Assembly (NCBI RefSeq): GCF_009741925.1
Contig: NZ_WPCC01000008.1
Coordinates: 1 to 64,000 of the forward strand
Direction of reading: 5' to 3'
Length of the DNA: 64,000 nucleotides
DNA from: Natronomonas sp. CBA1123
GTDB taxonomy: Archaea; Halobacteriota; Halobacteria; Halobacteriales; Haloarculaceae
The first letter of the stretch is position 1. The number at the start of each line of letters is the position of its first letter. Below, one piece after another: positions 5,369 to 11,648 of this stretch. The notes under the pieces are model-generated. The model was not told the origin of the DNA. It saw only the letters and a list, made by a program, of their open reading frames with translations, and did not search any database. Made by a program: the position numbers and the translations under genes.

Positions 5369-7834
5369 TCACAGCGAGGCGTCGTCGAATACCCGCGCCC
5401 AGATGACGAGCACCGACGGCAACACGAACAGCGAGGCGAGATACGAGTAGAACACCGACATCCCGGTGAGGATGCCGAACTGGCCGATGGCGGGGAAGAT
5501 GGACAACACCAGCACGCCGATGCCGAACACCGTCGTGAGCATGCTTCCGGTCAGCGCCCCACCGGTGCCGCGGACGGTCTTCTCGAGTGCCTCGTAGACG
5601 CCGCGGTCGCGTTCCTCGTACTCGTCGGCGAAACGGTGGACGATGTGGACCGAGTAGTCGATGCCGAGGCCGATGGTAATCGCGAGGATGGTCGCGGTGA
5701 AGGCGTTGAACGACAGCCCGAAGAGCCGCATCGACCCGGCGACCATCGCGACGGTCACGACGATGGGGGCGATGTTCGCCAACCCCAGCGAGGCCCGCCC
5801 GAGTAACAGCCAGTAGATGAACACGAGGAAGACGGCGGTTCCACCCAATGCGACGGCGAGGCTCACGACTGCCGACTGGAGGATGATGTCGGAGACGGCC
5901 TGGAAGACGACGGTGTTGCCGGTCGCCGTCGCATCGAAACGCTGGCGGTCCGCGATGGCTCGGGCGTCGTCCGTAATCTCCTGTTGGGTAGCATCGGATT
6001 CCACCGAGTAGACGATTCGGGCACTTCGGCGGTCTTCGGTCATGTACTGGGCGGCCTGTCCGCTCGCCGGGGAGTCGTACAGGTAGTCGTACACGTCGCC
6101 GAGGTTTCGGTCGGGAATCCCGTCGTCGTCGATGTCGTTGCGGTCGACGAGGCGCCGGAACTCGGGGTCGCGCTCGGCGTGGCTATCGATGACGGTGATG
6201 ATGCTCGTCTCGGAGGCGTACCGGCCGTCCCGGACGAAGGCATCGGGTGGGTCCTCGCCGGCACGACGCATCGATTCCAACGCCGCTGGCTGTTCCATCG
6301 GCCCCTCGACGTACACCGTCACCGTGTCGGTCTGCCCGGATTCGAAGTTCTCCTCCAGGAAGTTAATCGTCGCAGTCACCGTGTACTCTCCGGGAGCGAG
6401 GGGTTCGGGCACGTAGTCGTAGTACCCCGGCGAATCCTCCGGCGGGAGGAAGTCCTCGTCCTCGAAGGTAGTGTCGATGCCGGTCGCGTAGCCGGCGGCC
6501 ACACCGCTGACGAGCAACAGCGCGACGAAGAAGGCAATCGGTGCGATTCGGGCGATTTTGACGCCGATGGTCTGGAAGCCGCCGAGTATCGAGCCCTCCG
6601 AACCGAGGGGCGTGGTGGCGAACGTCGGAATCGGGTACCGCTCTCGAGCGTGGTCGAGTTTTACCTTCGCCGCCGGCAGGAATATCCCGAACACCAGGAA
6701 GGTGAACACGATGCCGACGGCGGCGACGATGCCGAACTCCCGTATCGGTGGGAGGTCGCTCGTGAGGTTCGCGAGGAAGCCGATGACGGTCGTCCCCGTC
6801 ACGATGAAGAAGGCGACCAACACCTGGTCGGTCGTCGTCGACATCGACTCGACGATGCCGAACCCCTTGACCTGCTCTTCCCGATAGCGGTTCACCGCGT
6901 GGATGCCGAAGTCGATACCGACCGCCAACAGCAGCGGTGGCACCGAAATCAGTATCTGGCTGAACGGAATGCCGACCAGCCCCATGAACCCGAACGTCCA
7001 AATCAGGGCGATGAGCAGCGAGACCACGCCCAACAGCAGGTCGGCGAGGTCGCGGTAGGCGACGAACAGGAACAGCGTGATGAGCAACACCGCCGCCGGG
7101 ATGACGAGCGCGAGGGTGTCGCCGATGACGGCGCCGAACTCCGCAGCGGTGATACCGGTACCGAAGACGGTGATGTCGCTGCCGACCGAGTTCGCGATAG
7201 TTCGCGCCTCCTGTTGGATGGGCGTCAACGGACTGGAGCCACCCTGTCCCGCGCTGCTGGAGAGCCCCGACGGGATGTCGTGGCTTACGACGCCGATAGT
7301 CGCCGACGCCGATGCCGACTGGCGATTGTAGTCGTTCGACAACAGCCCGGAGAAACGGGGGTTCGTCTCGTCTGCCTGCCGTATCGCCTGCTGTATCTCG
7401 GTGGCGGTTGCCGCCTCGAGGGCCTGCTGTTGTTGTTCGGGGGTCGTCGCTTGGGGGTCGAGTTGCTGGGCGACGATGCTGGCGGCCGAAGACGTACTCG
7501 AGACGCGCAACCCCGGCCGGTCGGCCATCTGCTCTTGGACCTCCAACATCCGGAGCATCGCGTCCCGCGAGAGGACGTTCTCGCTGTCCTGTATCAGTTG
7601 GGTGCTGCCGCTGTCGGCGCCGAACGCCGGCGAGAACTTCTGGTTGACCTCGTCGAGCGCTTCCTGTGCCGGCGTGCTTTCGGCGAACTGCTGGGTGCCA
7701 GCGCTCGTCGAGACGCCACCGAGACCGACCACGAACAGCCCCGTGACCAGCAGGAACGCGAGGATGACCGTCCCCGGCCGTTCGGTGATGTAGTGGTCGA
7801 GCCGGTCGATGTACGGCTGGTAGTCGACCGCCAT
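5369..7834 (-). CDS. RND/MMPL-family exporter
   Basis: This 821-residue membrane protein has the RND layout: one N-terminal membrane helix (about 22-42), a long outside loop, a five-helix bundle, a second outside loop, and a final helix bundle. Two sterol-sensing-domain-like helix sets are visible, with AVGIDFGIHAVNRYREE in the first half and TIGLGIDYSVHIVHRFADE in the second. These GIDF/GIDY helices carry the proton-relay aspartates of MMPL/HpnN-type transporters. It starts directly after the stop of the upstream secreted-protein gene (no gap), so the two are probably translated together. The substrate is unknown; lipids or hydrophobic compounds are typical for the family. Confidence 0.88.
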   Translation of the reverse strand: MAVDYQPYIDRLDHYITERPGTVILAFLLVTGLFVVGLGGVSTSAGTQQFAESTPAQEALDEVNQKFSPAFGADSGSTQLIQDSENVLSRDAMLRMLEVQEQMADRPGLRVSSTSSAASIVAQQLDPQATTPEQQQQALEAATATEIQQAIRQADETNPRFSGLLSNDYNRQSASASATIGVVSHDIPSGLSSSAGQGGSSPLTPIQQEARTIANSVGSDITVFGTGITAAEFGAVIGDTLALVIPAAVLLITLFLFVAYRDLADLLLGVVSLLIALIWTFGFMGLVGIPFSQILISVPPLLLAVGIDFGIHAVNRYREEQVKGFGIVESMSTTTDQVLVAFFIVTGTTVIGFLANLTSDLPPIREFGIVAAVGIVFTFLVFGIFLPAAKVKLDHARERYPIPTFATTPLGSEGSILGGFQTIGVKIARIAPIAFFVALLLVSGVAAGYATGIDTTFEDEDFLPPEDSPGYYDYVPEPLAPGEYTVTATINFLEENFESGQTDTVTVYVEGPMEQPAALESMRRAGEDPPDAFVRDGRYASETSIITVIDSHAERDPEFRRLVDRNDIDDDGIPDRNLGDVYDYLYDSPASGQAAQYMTEDRRSARIVYSVESDATQQEITDDARAIADRQRFDATATGNTVVFQAVSDIILQSAVVSLAVALGGTAVFLVFIYWLLLGRASLGLANIAPIVVTVAMVAGSMRLFGLSFNAFTATILAITIGLGIDYSVHIVHRFADEYEERDRGVYEALEKTVRGTGGALTGSMLTTVFGIGVLVLSIFPAIGQFGILTGMSVFYSYLASLFVLPSVLVIWARVFDDASL

Positions 7835-9976
7835 CTATCGCCGCCGACGGAGCCGCAGTGCCAGCGGTGCAAGCGGGACGAGCAACAGCGGGGCGAACCC
7901 GACTGCGCTCGCGGGTGCGACCGACCCGAACAGCCCGCCGCCCGACTCCTGGACCGAGACCGGTACGCGATAGCTCTCCGAGAGCCGCGTCTCACCGGCG
8001 GCATCGACGTACTGGAAGTCGACGGAGACCGGGTAATCCTTCTGCATCGCCGACCCGGACGCCGACACGCGGAACGGCACCTCGACCGTCTCGCCGGGTT
8101 CGAGTTCGGCGATGTACGCCTCGTCGTCGCTCGTCGACAGCGGCGAGGAGGCGAACAGTTTCGCCGACACGTCGGTGACGGTTTCGTTTCGCTGGTTCGT
8201 CACTGCGAGGACGATACGGCTCTCTTCGCCCGCCGAGACGTTCGTGTTCCGGGCCTCGACGCCGAAGACGTCGCGGCGCGGCTCGACCGACTGGCGGAAC
8301 TGAATCGGGTCGGCCTGCCGTTCGTCGTCGTCGAGGGTCTCGTAGTTCGTCCGCAGCGAGAACTGCCGCGGTCCCGCGCGGGCCGCGCTCGCGACCTCCA
8401 CGTCGAAGGAAACGTCGACGGATTCGCCCGAATCGAGGTCGCCCAACGCGACCTGGGGTTCGAGCACTTCGACGTTCTGGTTCGGCGGGTCCAGCGTCAC
8501 GACGACGTTTTCGACCGCGTTGGGACCCACGTTGGTGAACGTCCCGCGGAGCGTCCCGTCCTGTGAGACCCGGAGCGAGGAGTCGACGTTCTCGAAGGTG
8601 AACGTCTGGTCGTCGTCGGGGACGACACCGACGGTGTTACGCTGGGTCGCACCGGTCGTCTCGTCGGTGTCGTAGCCGATGGCCATATCGACGGCGTACC
8701 CCCGGGTGCGTGCGTTCTCGGCGAACTGCCCGCCGACGGTCACAGTGCGCTGTTCGCCCGGTTCGATGCTACCGATGTAGGCGCTGGCCGAGTTGCTCGC
8801 GGCGCCGAACGTGAGCCCGGCCTCCCGGGAAGTGAGGTCGACGGTTACGTCCTCGAGTGACTCCTCACCGGTGTGTTCGAGCGTGATGCCGATTTCGCCT
8901 TGCTCGCCGGGACCGGCCGTCGAATCGACTTCGGCGACGGCGAGGACGCCGCCGGTGTCGGGGGTGACACCGACCGTCGAACGACTCGTGAACGGCACGT
9001 CGTTGTCGTCGGTGTACTCGACCGACAGCGATGCCGGTAACGCCCGGATGCCGGCGCCGTCGGTGACGCTCCCTGACAGCGTGACGGTTCGGTTCTCGCC
9101 GGGTTCCCAGCGGTCGACGTAGGCCTCACTCGACCCCGTGGCGCCCAACTGGAGGTCGCCGGTGAGCGATTCGAGGCTGACGACCGCGTCGTTGGCCGCT
9201 GCCTCGCCGGCGTTCGTCAGTTCGAGTTCGACGGCCCCGGTGTCGCCCGGGGCGGGGGCGCTGATATCGCGGACCTCGAAATCGGCTTCTTCGTCGACGA
9301 CGACCTTGACGGAGCGTTGGACGATTTCGGTTTCGTCGCGCTGTGAGTTCTGTCCCCGCTCGCCGATGAATGGCGTGTACTCGTAGCTGACCTCTATCGG
9401 AATCCGATAGGTGCCGGGGTCGGCATTCTCGTCGACGGATAACTGGATGCCGACTGGGATGGCGTTGCCGTCGGGGAGATTACCGACTGCCGTTTCGGCG
9501 CTTCGGACGGTAATCGGCCCTTCACTCTCCGGGTTGACAGTCACGCCGCGGGCGGTCGTAACGCGACGTTCGGCATCGACATTCCCCTGTGAACTACCGT
9601 GGGTGACTTCTCCACGGTTGATGACGCTCACTTGGAGTTGCGTCGTCTCTCCAGCGGAGAGGCGATTGTCTCCTGCTGTGAGAGAAATGTTGGGTTCGCC
9701 GGTGACGTTTGCGGCCGCAGGGGCGGCGAAAATCGGTGCGAAAACCGAGGTGAAAAGGGCAATCGAGAGGGCGACGGCAGCAATGCGAGACGCTTCCGGT
9801 GAGGACATACGCTCATAAAGCCCCGCCGTCCACTTAGTTACCCGTCCATCGGCAGAACGGCCCCTGTCAGATAAAGACGCCTTCCGTCTCCGATTGGACC
9901 GCTCGTCCGCCGAATCGTCGGCCTCCGGCGCTTGCCGACTTCGGTTATCGTCCGCTCCGCGACGGATTCCACTCAT
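7835..9976 (-). CDS. Secreted CARDB/COG1361-type S-layer-like protein, partner of the RND exporter
   Basis: From the ATG at 9976 this is 713 residues. A hydrophilic stretch of about 56 residues is followed by a signal-type helix (AAVALSIALFTSVFAPIFA). Several beta-sandwich repeats follow, each with a 'EPGE--TV' turn typical of COG1361/CARDB domains, and then a C-terminal membrane helix ending in RRRR. Most of the protein should therefore sit outside, anchored at the C-terminus. A later ATG at 9808 would start just before the signal helix; the TATA box 26 bases before 9976 supports the longer form. The TAG stop abuts the exporter ATG. I infer that it works as an outside partner of the exporter. 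Confidence 0.75.
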   Translation of the reverse strand: MSGIRRGADDNRSRQAPEADDSADERSNRRRKASLSDRGRSADGRVTKWTAGLYERMSSPEASRIAAVALSIALFTSVFAPIFAAPAAANVTGEPNISLTAGDNRLSAGETTQLQVSVINRGEVTHGSSQGNVDAERRVTTARGVTVNPESEGPITVRSAETAVGNLPDGNAIPVGIQLSVDENADPGTYRIPIEVSYEYTPFIGERGQNSQRDETEIVQRSVKVVVDEEADFEVRDISAPAPGDTGAVELELTNAGEAAANDAVVSLESLTGDLQLGATGSSEAYVDRWEPGENRTVTLSGSVTDGAGIRALPASLSVEYTDDNDVPFTSRSTVGVTPDTGGVLAVAEVDSTAGPGEQGEIGITLEHTGEESLEDVTVDLTSREAGLTFGAASNSASAYIGSIEPGEQRTVTVGGQFAENARTRGYAVDMAIGYDTDETTGATQRNTVGVVPDDDQTFTFENVDSSLRVSQDGTLRGTFTNVGPNAVENVVVTLDPPNQNVEVLEPQVALGDLDSGESVDVSFDVEVASAARAGPRQFSLRTNYETLDDDERQADPIQFRQSVEPRRDVFGVEARNTNVSAGEESRIVLAVTNQRNETVTDVSAKLFASSPLSTSDDEAYIAELEPGETVEVPFRVSASGSAMQKDYPVSVDFQYVDAAGETRLSESYRVPVSVQESGGGLFGSVAPASAVGFAPLLLVPLAPLALRLRRRR

Positions 9977-9980
9977 AAAC

Positions 9981-10000
9981 TACCTACCGTTCGGTAGGTA
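9981..10000. promoter_or_regulatory. TetR-type operator: 9-bp inverted repeat
   Basis: TACCTACCG-TT-CGGTAGGTA is a perfect inverted repeat with a two-base spacer. It lies five bases upstream of the ATG at 9976 and overlaps the TATA box of the secreted-protein/exporter operon. The neighbouring TetR gene ends 85 bases away, so this is its most likely binding site. A bound repressor here would block both TBP binding and transcript start. Confidence 0.75.
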
Positions 10001-10006
10001 AATATG
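9999..10006 (-). promoter_or_regulatory. TATA box of the secreted-protein/RND operon
   Basis: CATATTTA on the reverse strand is centred about 26 bases before the ATG at 9976. This predicts a leaderless transcript and supports that start codon. It overlaps one arm of the operator. Confidence 0.55.
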
Positions 10007-10084
10007 GGTTCTGGTTCCGGTCGACTGTCACCACCGCGGGTCCGGTTCGGTACCTCGGACCGTTCCGGAGACGCGCTCCGCCGA

Positions 10085-10741
10085 CTATGCGGTCGGTTCG
10101 GCCTCGTCGTCGGTTACGAGACGACCGTCGATGTACGCGTCCAGTTCCGTGCGGGCTGCTTCGAGTGCTCCTTCGTCGCTGGTCGCTGCACGGAAGATGA
10201 CGCCCTCGATGTTGTACAGAAGATACTCGGCGACTCCGTGGCTGTCGACCGGTCGGAAGACACCCTCCTCGATACCGCGGTCTACCAGGCCGGCCAGTTG
10301 GGTTTCGATGCGGCGTTCGCTCTCGGTGAAGTGGCGTCGGTACTCCTCGTCGTGTGCCGCCTGGGCTCGAAGTTCGACGTACGCTCGGGCGAAGTCGGGC
10401 GTCATGAACGTGGCCTCCTCGTCGCCGGCAGCATCGGAGACGTTCAGGAAAAACGAATCGAGGGCGGTCCGGAGGTCCTGCTCGGCGTCGCCGTGTTCGC
10501 CCAAGGGGAACACGTCGACCAGCCGTTCCGTCAGGAAGTCGAGAAACGCCTTCAGCAGGTCGTCTTTCCCGTCGTAGTGGTAGTACAGCGACGCCTTCTC
10601 GATGCCGACCCGGTCGGCGACCCGTTGCATGGAGAGGCCGTCGTAGCCCCGTTCACAGAGGATTCCGTACGTCGCCTTCATTATCGACTGGCGGGTGTCT
10701 TCGGGGTCCGACGGGAATATTTCGACTGGTTCGTGGGGCAT
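10085..10741 (-). CDS. TetR/AcrR-family transcriptional repressor
   Basis: This 218-residue regulator has an N-terminal helix-turn-helix: YGILCERGYDGLSMQRVAD, then GIEKASLYYHYDGKDDL at about 48-64, the recognition helix and its TetR hallmark. The C-terminal ligand-binding half resembles TetR_C domains that sense hydrophobic molecules. It is encoded just upstream of, and on the same strand as, the secreted protein and RND exporter, whose promoter carries the 9981-10000 inverted repeat. The likely role is repression of that exporter until an unknown ligand binds. No copy of the repeat is seen upstream of this gene, so self-regulation is not obvious. Confidence 0.88.
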   Translation of the reverse strand: MPHEPVEIFPSDPEDTRQSIMKATYGILCERGYDGLSMQRVADRVGIEKASLYYHYDGKDDLLKAFLDFLTERLVDVFPLGEHGDAEQDLRTALDSFFLNVSDAAGDEEATFMTPDFARAYVELRAQAAHDEEYRRHFTESERRIETQLAGLVDRGIEEGVFRPVDSHGVAEYLLYNIEGVIFRAATSDEGALEAARTELDAYIDGRLVTDDEAEPTA

Positions 10742-10810: not shown

Positions 10811-11533
10811 CTACTGCTCGACGAGGCCGTACGTCGATTCGAGGTGGTCGATAATCCAATCGACCGTGTCGGGGTCGTAGGTCCAGAAGCCGTAGAACGC
10901 ACGCGGTTCCCGCTCCTCGGCGAGCAGCGCACACTTGTTGACGTCGACGCCGGCGCCGTCGTAGACGACGAACCAGGACTGCTCGATTTCGTCGGCGCGT
11001 TCGACGTGAATCGTGAGGTCGGTGTCGTGTTCCGGCACGTCGGTGTCCGGGGCACCGTAGGCGTGGACGTTGAGACTCCCTTTCTCGGCGAGTTGCTCGT
11101 AGATGTCCATCTGGTCTTCGAGGATGGAGAGCTGTTGGAACCCCGAGTGGAGCGTCCCCTTCCCGACGCGCCACGCGCGGTCCTCGATTTCCCGGGAGGC
11201 AGCGACCATCTGCTCGATGTCGTAGGACGTGAACATCGTCTCGTCGAGATGGTCGAGGATGGGGCGGTACGCCTCGCCGTCGAACCCCGGGTCGGTTTCG
11301 CTGTCGTCCGGGTCCAGAACCTCTCCGAGGTTCGCGGCCGTGACGAACGTGTCGTCCTCGGAGAGGACGACGAACGAGGTCGGCTTGCCGCTGGGCGTCC
11401 GCTCGGCTGACACCGAGAGGTTCCGGTCTCGGAACTGCTCCCGGAGCGAGGAAGCGGCGCTGTCGGGTGCGTTGTACACCGTGAGCCGCTTCTCGTGGTC
11501 CTCGACCCCCGTAATAAGCTCGCTGAGAGACAT
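10811..11533 (-). CDS. DICT sensory domain protein
   Basis: This protein of about 240 residues starts MSLSELITGVEDHEKRL and matches the haloarchaeal DICT (diguanylate-cyclase and two-component associated) sensory domain family. Features include the motifs FVVLSEDDTFVTAANL and DETMFTSYDIEQMV. No DNA-binding or enzymatic domain is visible. A GTG at 11551 could add six residues; ATG 11533 is preferred because a TATA-like CTTATTAC lies about 30 bases upstream. It is 69 bases upstream of the TetR gene on the same strand, so the two may be co-transcribed. What it senses is unknown; stress or light responses have been proposed for the family. Confidence 0.75.
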   Translation of the reverse strand: MSLSELITGVEDHEKRLTVYNAPDSAASSLREQFRDRNLSVSAERTPSGKPTSFVVLSEDDTFVTAANLGEVLDPDDSETDPGFDGEAYRPILDHLDETMFTSYDIEQMVAASREIEDRAWRVGKGTLHSGFQQLSILEDQMDIYEQLAEKGSLNVHAYGAPDTDVPEHDTDLTIHVERADEIEQSWFVVYDGAGVDVNKCALLAEEREPRAFYGFWTYDPDTVDWIIDHLESTYGLVEQ

Positions 11534-11648
11534 TCGCTCTAGGTTTACCACGCAATTCCCAGTAATAAGCCTGTGGTCGCGTCGTCACGGACGGTCACGC
11601 TCGGCCACCTCGAGTGTCACGTCCCGACCAAAACCCAACCACTCCGGC

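What the first reader, a model, noticed from the sequence alone, without database searches (positions are those of the whole stretch)
5369..10741. TetR-operator-secreted adaptor-RND exporter module
A TetR gene, a near-perfect inverted repeat overlapping the TATA box, a C-terminally anchored multi-repeat surface protein, and an RND/MMPL exporter lie in order, the last two with no gap. The CARDB-type protein could replace the periplasmic adaptor of bacterial RND pumps in a single-membrane archaeon. This would be a self-contained, ligand-controlled efflux or lipid-transport system.
Basis: partly seen in the sequence, partly recalled or inferred. Interest (0 to 1): 0.6.

Follow-up and report, generated by a model that had tools for sequence, protein, structure and literature searches.

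The report
TetR-controlled archaeal drug-pump operon
A salt-loving archaeon carries an operon for a toxin-expelling membrane pump and its outside partner protein, and comparison of some 200 related genomes shows that its switch protein and switch site belong to a family that controls several different kinds of drug pump.

Summary
In a Natronomonas genome, on the minus strand, lie a TetR gene, a perfect 20-bp palindrome against a TATA-like box, a signal-peptide/Ig-repeat/C-terminal-TM (CARDB) protein, and a 12-TM RND/MMPL exporter starting right after the CARDB stop codon. Comparative genomics supports most of the interpretation. (1) CARDB adjoins the exporter in 66 of 70 close relatives and in 27 of 30 strong HAE3 loci elsewhere in the phylum, in either gene order. 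(2) Most relatives have a related TetR, often divergent, with a palindrome of the same geometry. A whole-genome scan of 195 haloarchaeal genomes for TGANTGAANNTTCANTCA gave 57 genomes, no reversed-pattern hit, and 54 of 58 loci beside an exporter: CARDB-RND 27, MATE 12, ABC-2 9, lone RND 3, MFS 3. (3) The window's ACC-type operator and its paralog's TGA-type operator change together with the TetR recognition helix. So the module is most likely a TetR-repressed efflux pump for toxic compounds. The working analogue is mycobacterial MmpS5-MmpL5-Rv0678, whose structures are among the top fold hits for the exporter. A physical adaptor role for CARDB remains inferred: modelled docking was not confident, and CARDB is not a membrane-fusion protein. 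New variant of a known kind.

The parts
10811..11551 (-). DICT-domain (sensory) protein gene upstream of tetR; possibly part of the same transcription unit
   Evidence: Pfam DICT 5e-17; a homolog lies just upstream of CARDB in L010, L012, L022 and L029, where no tetR was found in between
10085..10741 (-). TetR-family regulator, 218 aa; recognition helix KASLYYHY
   Evidence: TetR_N 9e-13, TetR_C_6 3e-12; clade B of the exporter-associated TetR tree
9981..10000 (.). Palindrome TACCTACCGTTCGGTAGGTA, proposed TetR operator (triplets ACC-n-ACC in each half-site)
   Evidence: same register as TGA-n-TGA and CGA-c-CGA operators of relatives
9998..10005 (-). TATA-like promoter element abutting and overlapping the distal arm of the operator
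   Evidence: Sequence; about 26 nt upstream of the ATG at 9976, compatible with a leaderless transcript (inference)
7835..9976 (-). CARDB/NPCBM_assoc ectodomain protein, 713 aa: disordered pre-sequence 1-62, signal helix 62-79, five Ig-like domains (about 91-227, 233-335, 345-451, 459-565, 571-676), C-terminal TM about 690-709 with RRRR tail
   Evidence: conserved partner of the exporter
5369..7834 (-). RND/MMPL exporter, 821 aa, 12 TM, two roughly 185-aa outer loops, acidic relay residues D308 (TM4) and D726 (TM10)
   Evidence: MMPL 3e-36; AF2 helices; relay conservation; top fold hits MmpL5/MmpS5 and MmpL4

Best explanation
This is a TetR-repressed two-component efflux operon. Without ligand, a TetR dimer (possibly two, given the tandem triplets in each half-site) binds the palindrome at 9981-10000, which overlaps the TATA element, and blocks initiation of a leaderless CARDB-RND transcript. 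A toxic hydrophobic or amphipathic compound binds the TetR C-terminal pocket, releases it, and both proteins are made from one message. The 12-TM RND protein uses its conserved TM4/TM10 acidic residues to couple ion influx to extrusion. The CARDB protein, anchored next to it by its C-terminal TM with a chain of Ig-like domains outside, acts as its dedicated accessory, stabilising the assembly and/or receiving substrate in the space under or through the S-layer, much as the single-TM Ig-like MmpS5 does for MmpL5. Shown here by sequence: gene order, conservation of the pair, operator family and helix-operator covariation, fold class. Inferred: repression, ligand, substrate, ion coupling, physical contact.
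For: Pair conservation: 66 of 70 haloarchaeal relatives at 43% identity or more, including 3 copies in this genome; 27 of 30 HAE3 loci elsewhere in the phylum, CARDB upstream in one group and downstream in another. Operator: TGANTGAANNTTCANTCA found blind in 57 of 195 genomes with 0 reversed-control hits; 58 loci: CARDB-RND 27, MATE 12, ABC-2 9, lone RND 3, MFS 3, other 4, with a family TetR within 3 kb in 53 (Pfam checks). CGA-type sites lie beside STFYHHF-group TetR plus CARDB in 12 loci. The TetR tree separates helix classes that match operator triplets: SL(L/V/I)YHH-TGA, STFYHH-CGA, ASLYYH-ACC. The only TGA-type site in this genome is at its paralogous TetR/CARDB-RND locus. Palindrome conserved exactly in N. 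gomsonensis. Fold: MmpL5/MmpS5, MmpL4, HpnN top hits. Haloarchaeal MATE pumps are implicated in antibiotic resistance (PMC11721430). MmpS5 is a single-TM Ig-like protein required for MmpL5 drug efflux, under the repressor Rv0678 (PMC12501195, PMC6463170).
Against: No experiment. The ACC-type operator next to such a module was seen only in the window genome and N. gomsonensis, so it rests on covariation with two sequences. AF2 of the stop-readthrough CARDB-RND chain gave pTM 0.58, no confident docking. CARDB is absent next to three otherwise close exporters (L011, L023, L041) and from the 36%-identical subfamily, so it is not obligatory for all members. The exporter fold also matches lipid and sterol carriers (HpnN, MmpL3, NPC1L1).
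Confidence: 0.62

Rival explanations
1. Lipid or envelope-precursor transporter: the RND protein moves an archaeal lipid or isoprenoid, TetR senses a lipid-like metabolite, and CARDB is an envelope acceptor.
For: Fold is shared with MmpL3, HpnN and NPC1L1; Patched and sterol-sensing Pfam matches; mycobacterial TetR regulators of mmpL genes respond to palmitate (PMC6463170).
Against: The same TetR/operator family sits on MATE, ABC-2 and MFS exporters in other genomes; several paralogous modules with separate operators in one genome and patchy TetR presence suggest a facultative system.
Confidence: 0.22
2. CARDB is a co-regulated surface protein (S-layer reinforcement or a scavenger) that never touches the pump; linkage only reflects a shared envelope-stress response.
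For: Generic Ig-like repeats with no specific PDB sequence match; docking not confidently predicted; exporters without CARDB exist.
Against: Adjacency persists from haloarchaea to other archaeal families in either gene order although regulators differ (TetR versus MarR); it is not kept when the operator controls MATE, ABC or MFS pumps, so it follows the RND protein and not the stress regulon.
Confidence: 0.25
3. The palindrome is not the TetR site: it binds another regulator or is a chance dyad, and TetR acts elsewhere.
For: TetR is co-directional here, unlike most relatives; a 9-bp arm arises in 0.2% of shuffles.
Against: Exact conservation in N. gomsonensis; register identical to the family operators and helix-triplet covariation.
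Confidence: 0.1

Closest known systems
Mycobacterial MmpS5-MmpL5 with repressor Rv0678 (MarR)
   Same: RND/MMPL pump plus a single-TM protein with an Ig-like outer domain, translationally coupled genes, local drug-responsive repressor; MmpL5/MmpS5 is the top fold hit for the exporter (PMC12346298, PMC12501195)
   Different: MmpS has an N-terminal TM and one Ig-like domain, while CARDB has a C-terminal TM and five; no Pfam MmpS match; TetR instead of MarR here; single-membrane archaeon; the two outer loops (about 185 aa) show no long coiled-coil hairpin
HAE3 (TIGR00921) archaeal RND transporters
   Same: Best NCBIfam match, 3e-64; CARDB is also the neighbour of these proteins
   Different: 217 bits against a curated cut-off of 351.9, so not filed as a member; their nearby regulators include MarR
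Gram-negative tripartite RND pumps (AcrAB-TolC with AcrR)
   Same: TetR-type repressor next to an adaptor-like gene and an RND gene in one operon
   Different: No membrane-fusion protein, no outer-membrane channel, small outer loops of MmpL type
TetR-controlled MATE, DrrAB-like ABC and MFS exporters of haloarchaea
   Same: Same TetR subfamily and operator
   Different: Unrelated transporter folds, no CARDB partner

Membership tests
TetR family regulator | TetR_N helix-turn-helix domain | tested here: met
   PF00440 9.1e-13
TetR family regulator | Palindromic operator near the controlled promoter | tested here: met
   Comparative only:
TetR family regulator | Ligand-induced release from DNA | not testable with these tools
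   Needs protein and ligand assays
RND superfamily (MMPL type, PF03176) | MMPL domain, 12 TM as 2x6 with two outer loops | tested here: met
   PF03176 3.4e-36; helices in model; fold hits
RND superfamily (MMPL type, PF03176) | Acidic relay residues in TM4 and TM10 | tested here: met
   D308 and D726
HAE3 subfamily (TIGR00921) | Score above curated cut-off | tested here: not met
   217.2 against 351.9 bits
CARDB / NPCBM_assoc domain proteins | Pfam match above gathering score | tested here: met
   PF10633 66.3 and PF07705 41.7 bits
Membrane fusion protein / periplasmic adaptor (HlyD, AcrA type) | Alpha-helical hairpin, lipoyl and beta-barrel domains | tested here: not met
   No Pfam match; all-beta Ig-like model
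MmpS family | N-terminal TM plus one Ig-like domain, MmpS Pfam match | tested here: not met
   C-terminal TM, five domains, no match; works like, not member
MmpS family | Physical contact with the cognate RND pump | tested here: inconclusive
   Readthrough-chain model pTM 0.58

The most novel reading that the evidence does not exclude
Multi-Ig CARDB proteins are the dedicated accessory subunits of RND exporters across Archaea: an independent counterpart of MmpS and of bacterial adaptors suited to a single membrane under an S-layer. In haloarchaea this pump is one of at least four interchangeable exporter types plugged into one TetR/operator switch whose specificity diverges between paralogs.
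Probability: 0.45. Interest if true: 0.7.

Novelty: new variant of a known kind. Interest (0 to 1): 0.56.

Why it matters
Active drug efflux by RND pumps in archaea is poorly characterised, and how such a pump works without an outer membrane is open. A conserved two-gene pump with a defined switch site gives a direct test in genetically tractable haloarchaea. The exporter-swapping TetR/operator family offers a predicted efflux regulon for the group, and the two paralogous, separately tuned switches in one genome would be natural orthogonal regulators.

Tried and rejected
CARDB-RND gene fusion: the L036 candidate appears to be only a long open frame, and no true fusion was found. AF2 of the natural stop-readthrough chain as a docking test: not confident. 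Fold search with CARDB: generic Ig/MG-repeat proteins, uninformative. Sequence search of CARDB in PDB: no match. Near-match site C14:76414 in the own genome and ACC-type matches L119/L120: no TetR, CARDB or MMPL of these families beside them, taken as chance. CGA-type pattern: 17 of 30 loci show no TetR or CARDB and most look like background in GC-rich DNA. Literature: no held paper found that links CARDB/COG1361 proteins to archaeal RND pumps or describes this TetR/operator; the library is partial.

Full report
WHAT IS THERE. The window lies in a Natronomonas genome close to N. gomsonensis (exporter 97% identical). On the minus strand, in order, are a DICT-domain gene (11551-10811), tetR (10741-10085), a 108-bp intergenic stretch with the palindrome TACCTACCGTTCGGTAGGTA (9981-10000), the CARDB/NPCBM_assoc gene (9976-7835) and the RND/MMPL gene (7834-5369), the last two with zero gap and in one reading frame. 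The 18-bp core is unique in the 3.45-Mb genome. It is unchanged in N. gomsonensis although much of the surrounding intergenic sequence has drifted. A 9-bp arm arises in 11 of 5000 shuffles of that stretch. A TATA-like ATATTT abuts it, about 26 nt from the ATG, compatible with a leaderless transcript (inference).

THE PROTEINS. The exporter model has 12 TM helices in two groups of six and two outer loops of about 185 residues. Acidic relay residues D308 and D726 are present in TM4 and TM10 and conserved in most relatives. The closest solved folds are MmpL5/MmpS5, MmpL4, HpnN, NPC1L1 and MmpL3. The CARDB protein is a signal helix, five Ig-like domains and a C-terminal TM with a basic tail, preceded by about 60 disordered residues if the start at 9976 is used. 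It is not a membrane-fusion protein.

LINKAGE. Of 70 haloarchaeal relatives with at least 43% identity, 66 have CARDB on the same strand just upstream, usually within 0-30 nt; three do not (L011, L023, L041) and one ends at a contig edge. A more distant subfamily (34-40% identity, 14 loci) has none. Outside the haloarchaea, 27 of the 30 best TIGR00921 loci of the phylum have a CARDB hit directly beside the exporter: upstream in one family, downstream with a short overlap in another. In some of these the upstream regulator is MarR. Conservation with inversion of gene order argues for a functional partnership and not a frozen order.

THE SWITCH. In many relatives tetR is divergent and the shared intergenic stretch carries TGANTGAACGTTCANTCA. 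A blind scan of 195 genomes of the order gave 35 genomes for that pattern and 57 genomes for TGANTGAANNTTCANTCA, with no hit of the reversed control. Fetching and classifying 58 loci gave: CARDB-RND 27, MATE 12, ABC-2 DrrAB-like 9, lone RND 3, MFS 3, other 4; a TetR of the family lies within 3 kb in 53 (Pfam confirmation of exporters). The motif was derived from RND loci, so its recovery beside MATE, ABC and MFS genes is independent evidence. A second class, CGA-type, lies between a TetR of the STFYHHF-helix group and CARDB in 12 loci of the window's own family. The TetR tree places the window protein with the STFYHH group (support 0.97), and the helix classes track the operator triplets: SL(L/V/I)YHH with TGA-n-TGA, STFYHH with CGA-c-CGA, ASLYYH with ACC-t-ACC, all at the same distance from the dyad centre. 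In the window genome the only TGA-type site lies between the divergent tetR and the CARDB-RND paralog on contig C11. One genome therefore carries two modules with two separately tuned switches. A third module on C9 has a TetR of another subfamily.

MECHANISM. The best reading is a TetR-repressed efflux pump for toxic hydrophobic compounds with a dedicated outer accessory subunit. Efflux is preferred over lipid export because the same regulator family is attached to MATE, ABC and MFS exporters; inhibitor and dye-accumulation work implicates haloarchaeal MATE pumps in antibiotic resistance (PMC11721430). The analogue is MmpS5-MmpL5-Rv0678, where a single-TM Ig-like protein is needed for trimer assembly and drug efflux (PMC12346298, PMC12501195, PMC6463170). 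Shown: anatomy, linkage, operator family, covariation, fold. Inferred: repression, ligand, substrate, ion coupling, CARDB-RND contact; the docking model was not confident (pTM 0.58).

VERDICT. The adaptor idea survives as a functional analogy, not as family membership. New variant of a known kind.

Noticed in passing
window 7834-7838 and loci: CARDB and RND genes are in the same reading frame in 48 of 66 haloarchaeal loci (12 and 6 in the other frames), without fusion. Shared ancestry may explain it; not corrected for phylogeny.
   Followed up: partly
window 10811-11551: DICT-domain gene upstream of tetR; in L010, L012, L022 and L029 its homolog lies directly upstream of CARDB with no tetR found, suggesting tetR entered between DICT and CARDB in the Natronomonas lineage.
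   Followed up: partly
window 9808-9976: A 56-residue poorly conserved, hydrophilic pre-sequence precedes the signal helix if translation starts at 9976; a second start at 9808 would remove it.
   Followed up: partly
L123, L159, L160: TGA-type operator and family TetR with no recognised exporter within 3 kb; in L123 the facing gene is a 438-aa protein that looks like a GARS/ATP-grasp enzyme (by eye).
   Followed up: no
L073-L088 (most) and L008: A second haloarchaeal RND/MMPL subfamily (34-40% identical) with no CARDB partner; 17 sequences of the broader alignment have Ala in place of the TM10 acidic residue. Two related loci (L177, L178) carry the TGA-type operator.
   Followed up: partly
L124, L125, L157, L158: TGA-type site at the promoter of an ABC-2 or MFS exporter with no TetR nearby, so the TetR may act from a distance.
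   Followed up: no
L027, L033: CARDB partner about twice as long (about 1400 aa) as usual.
   Followed up: no
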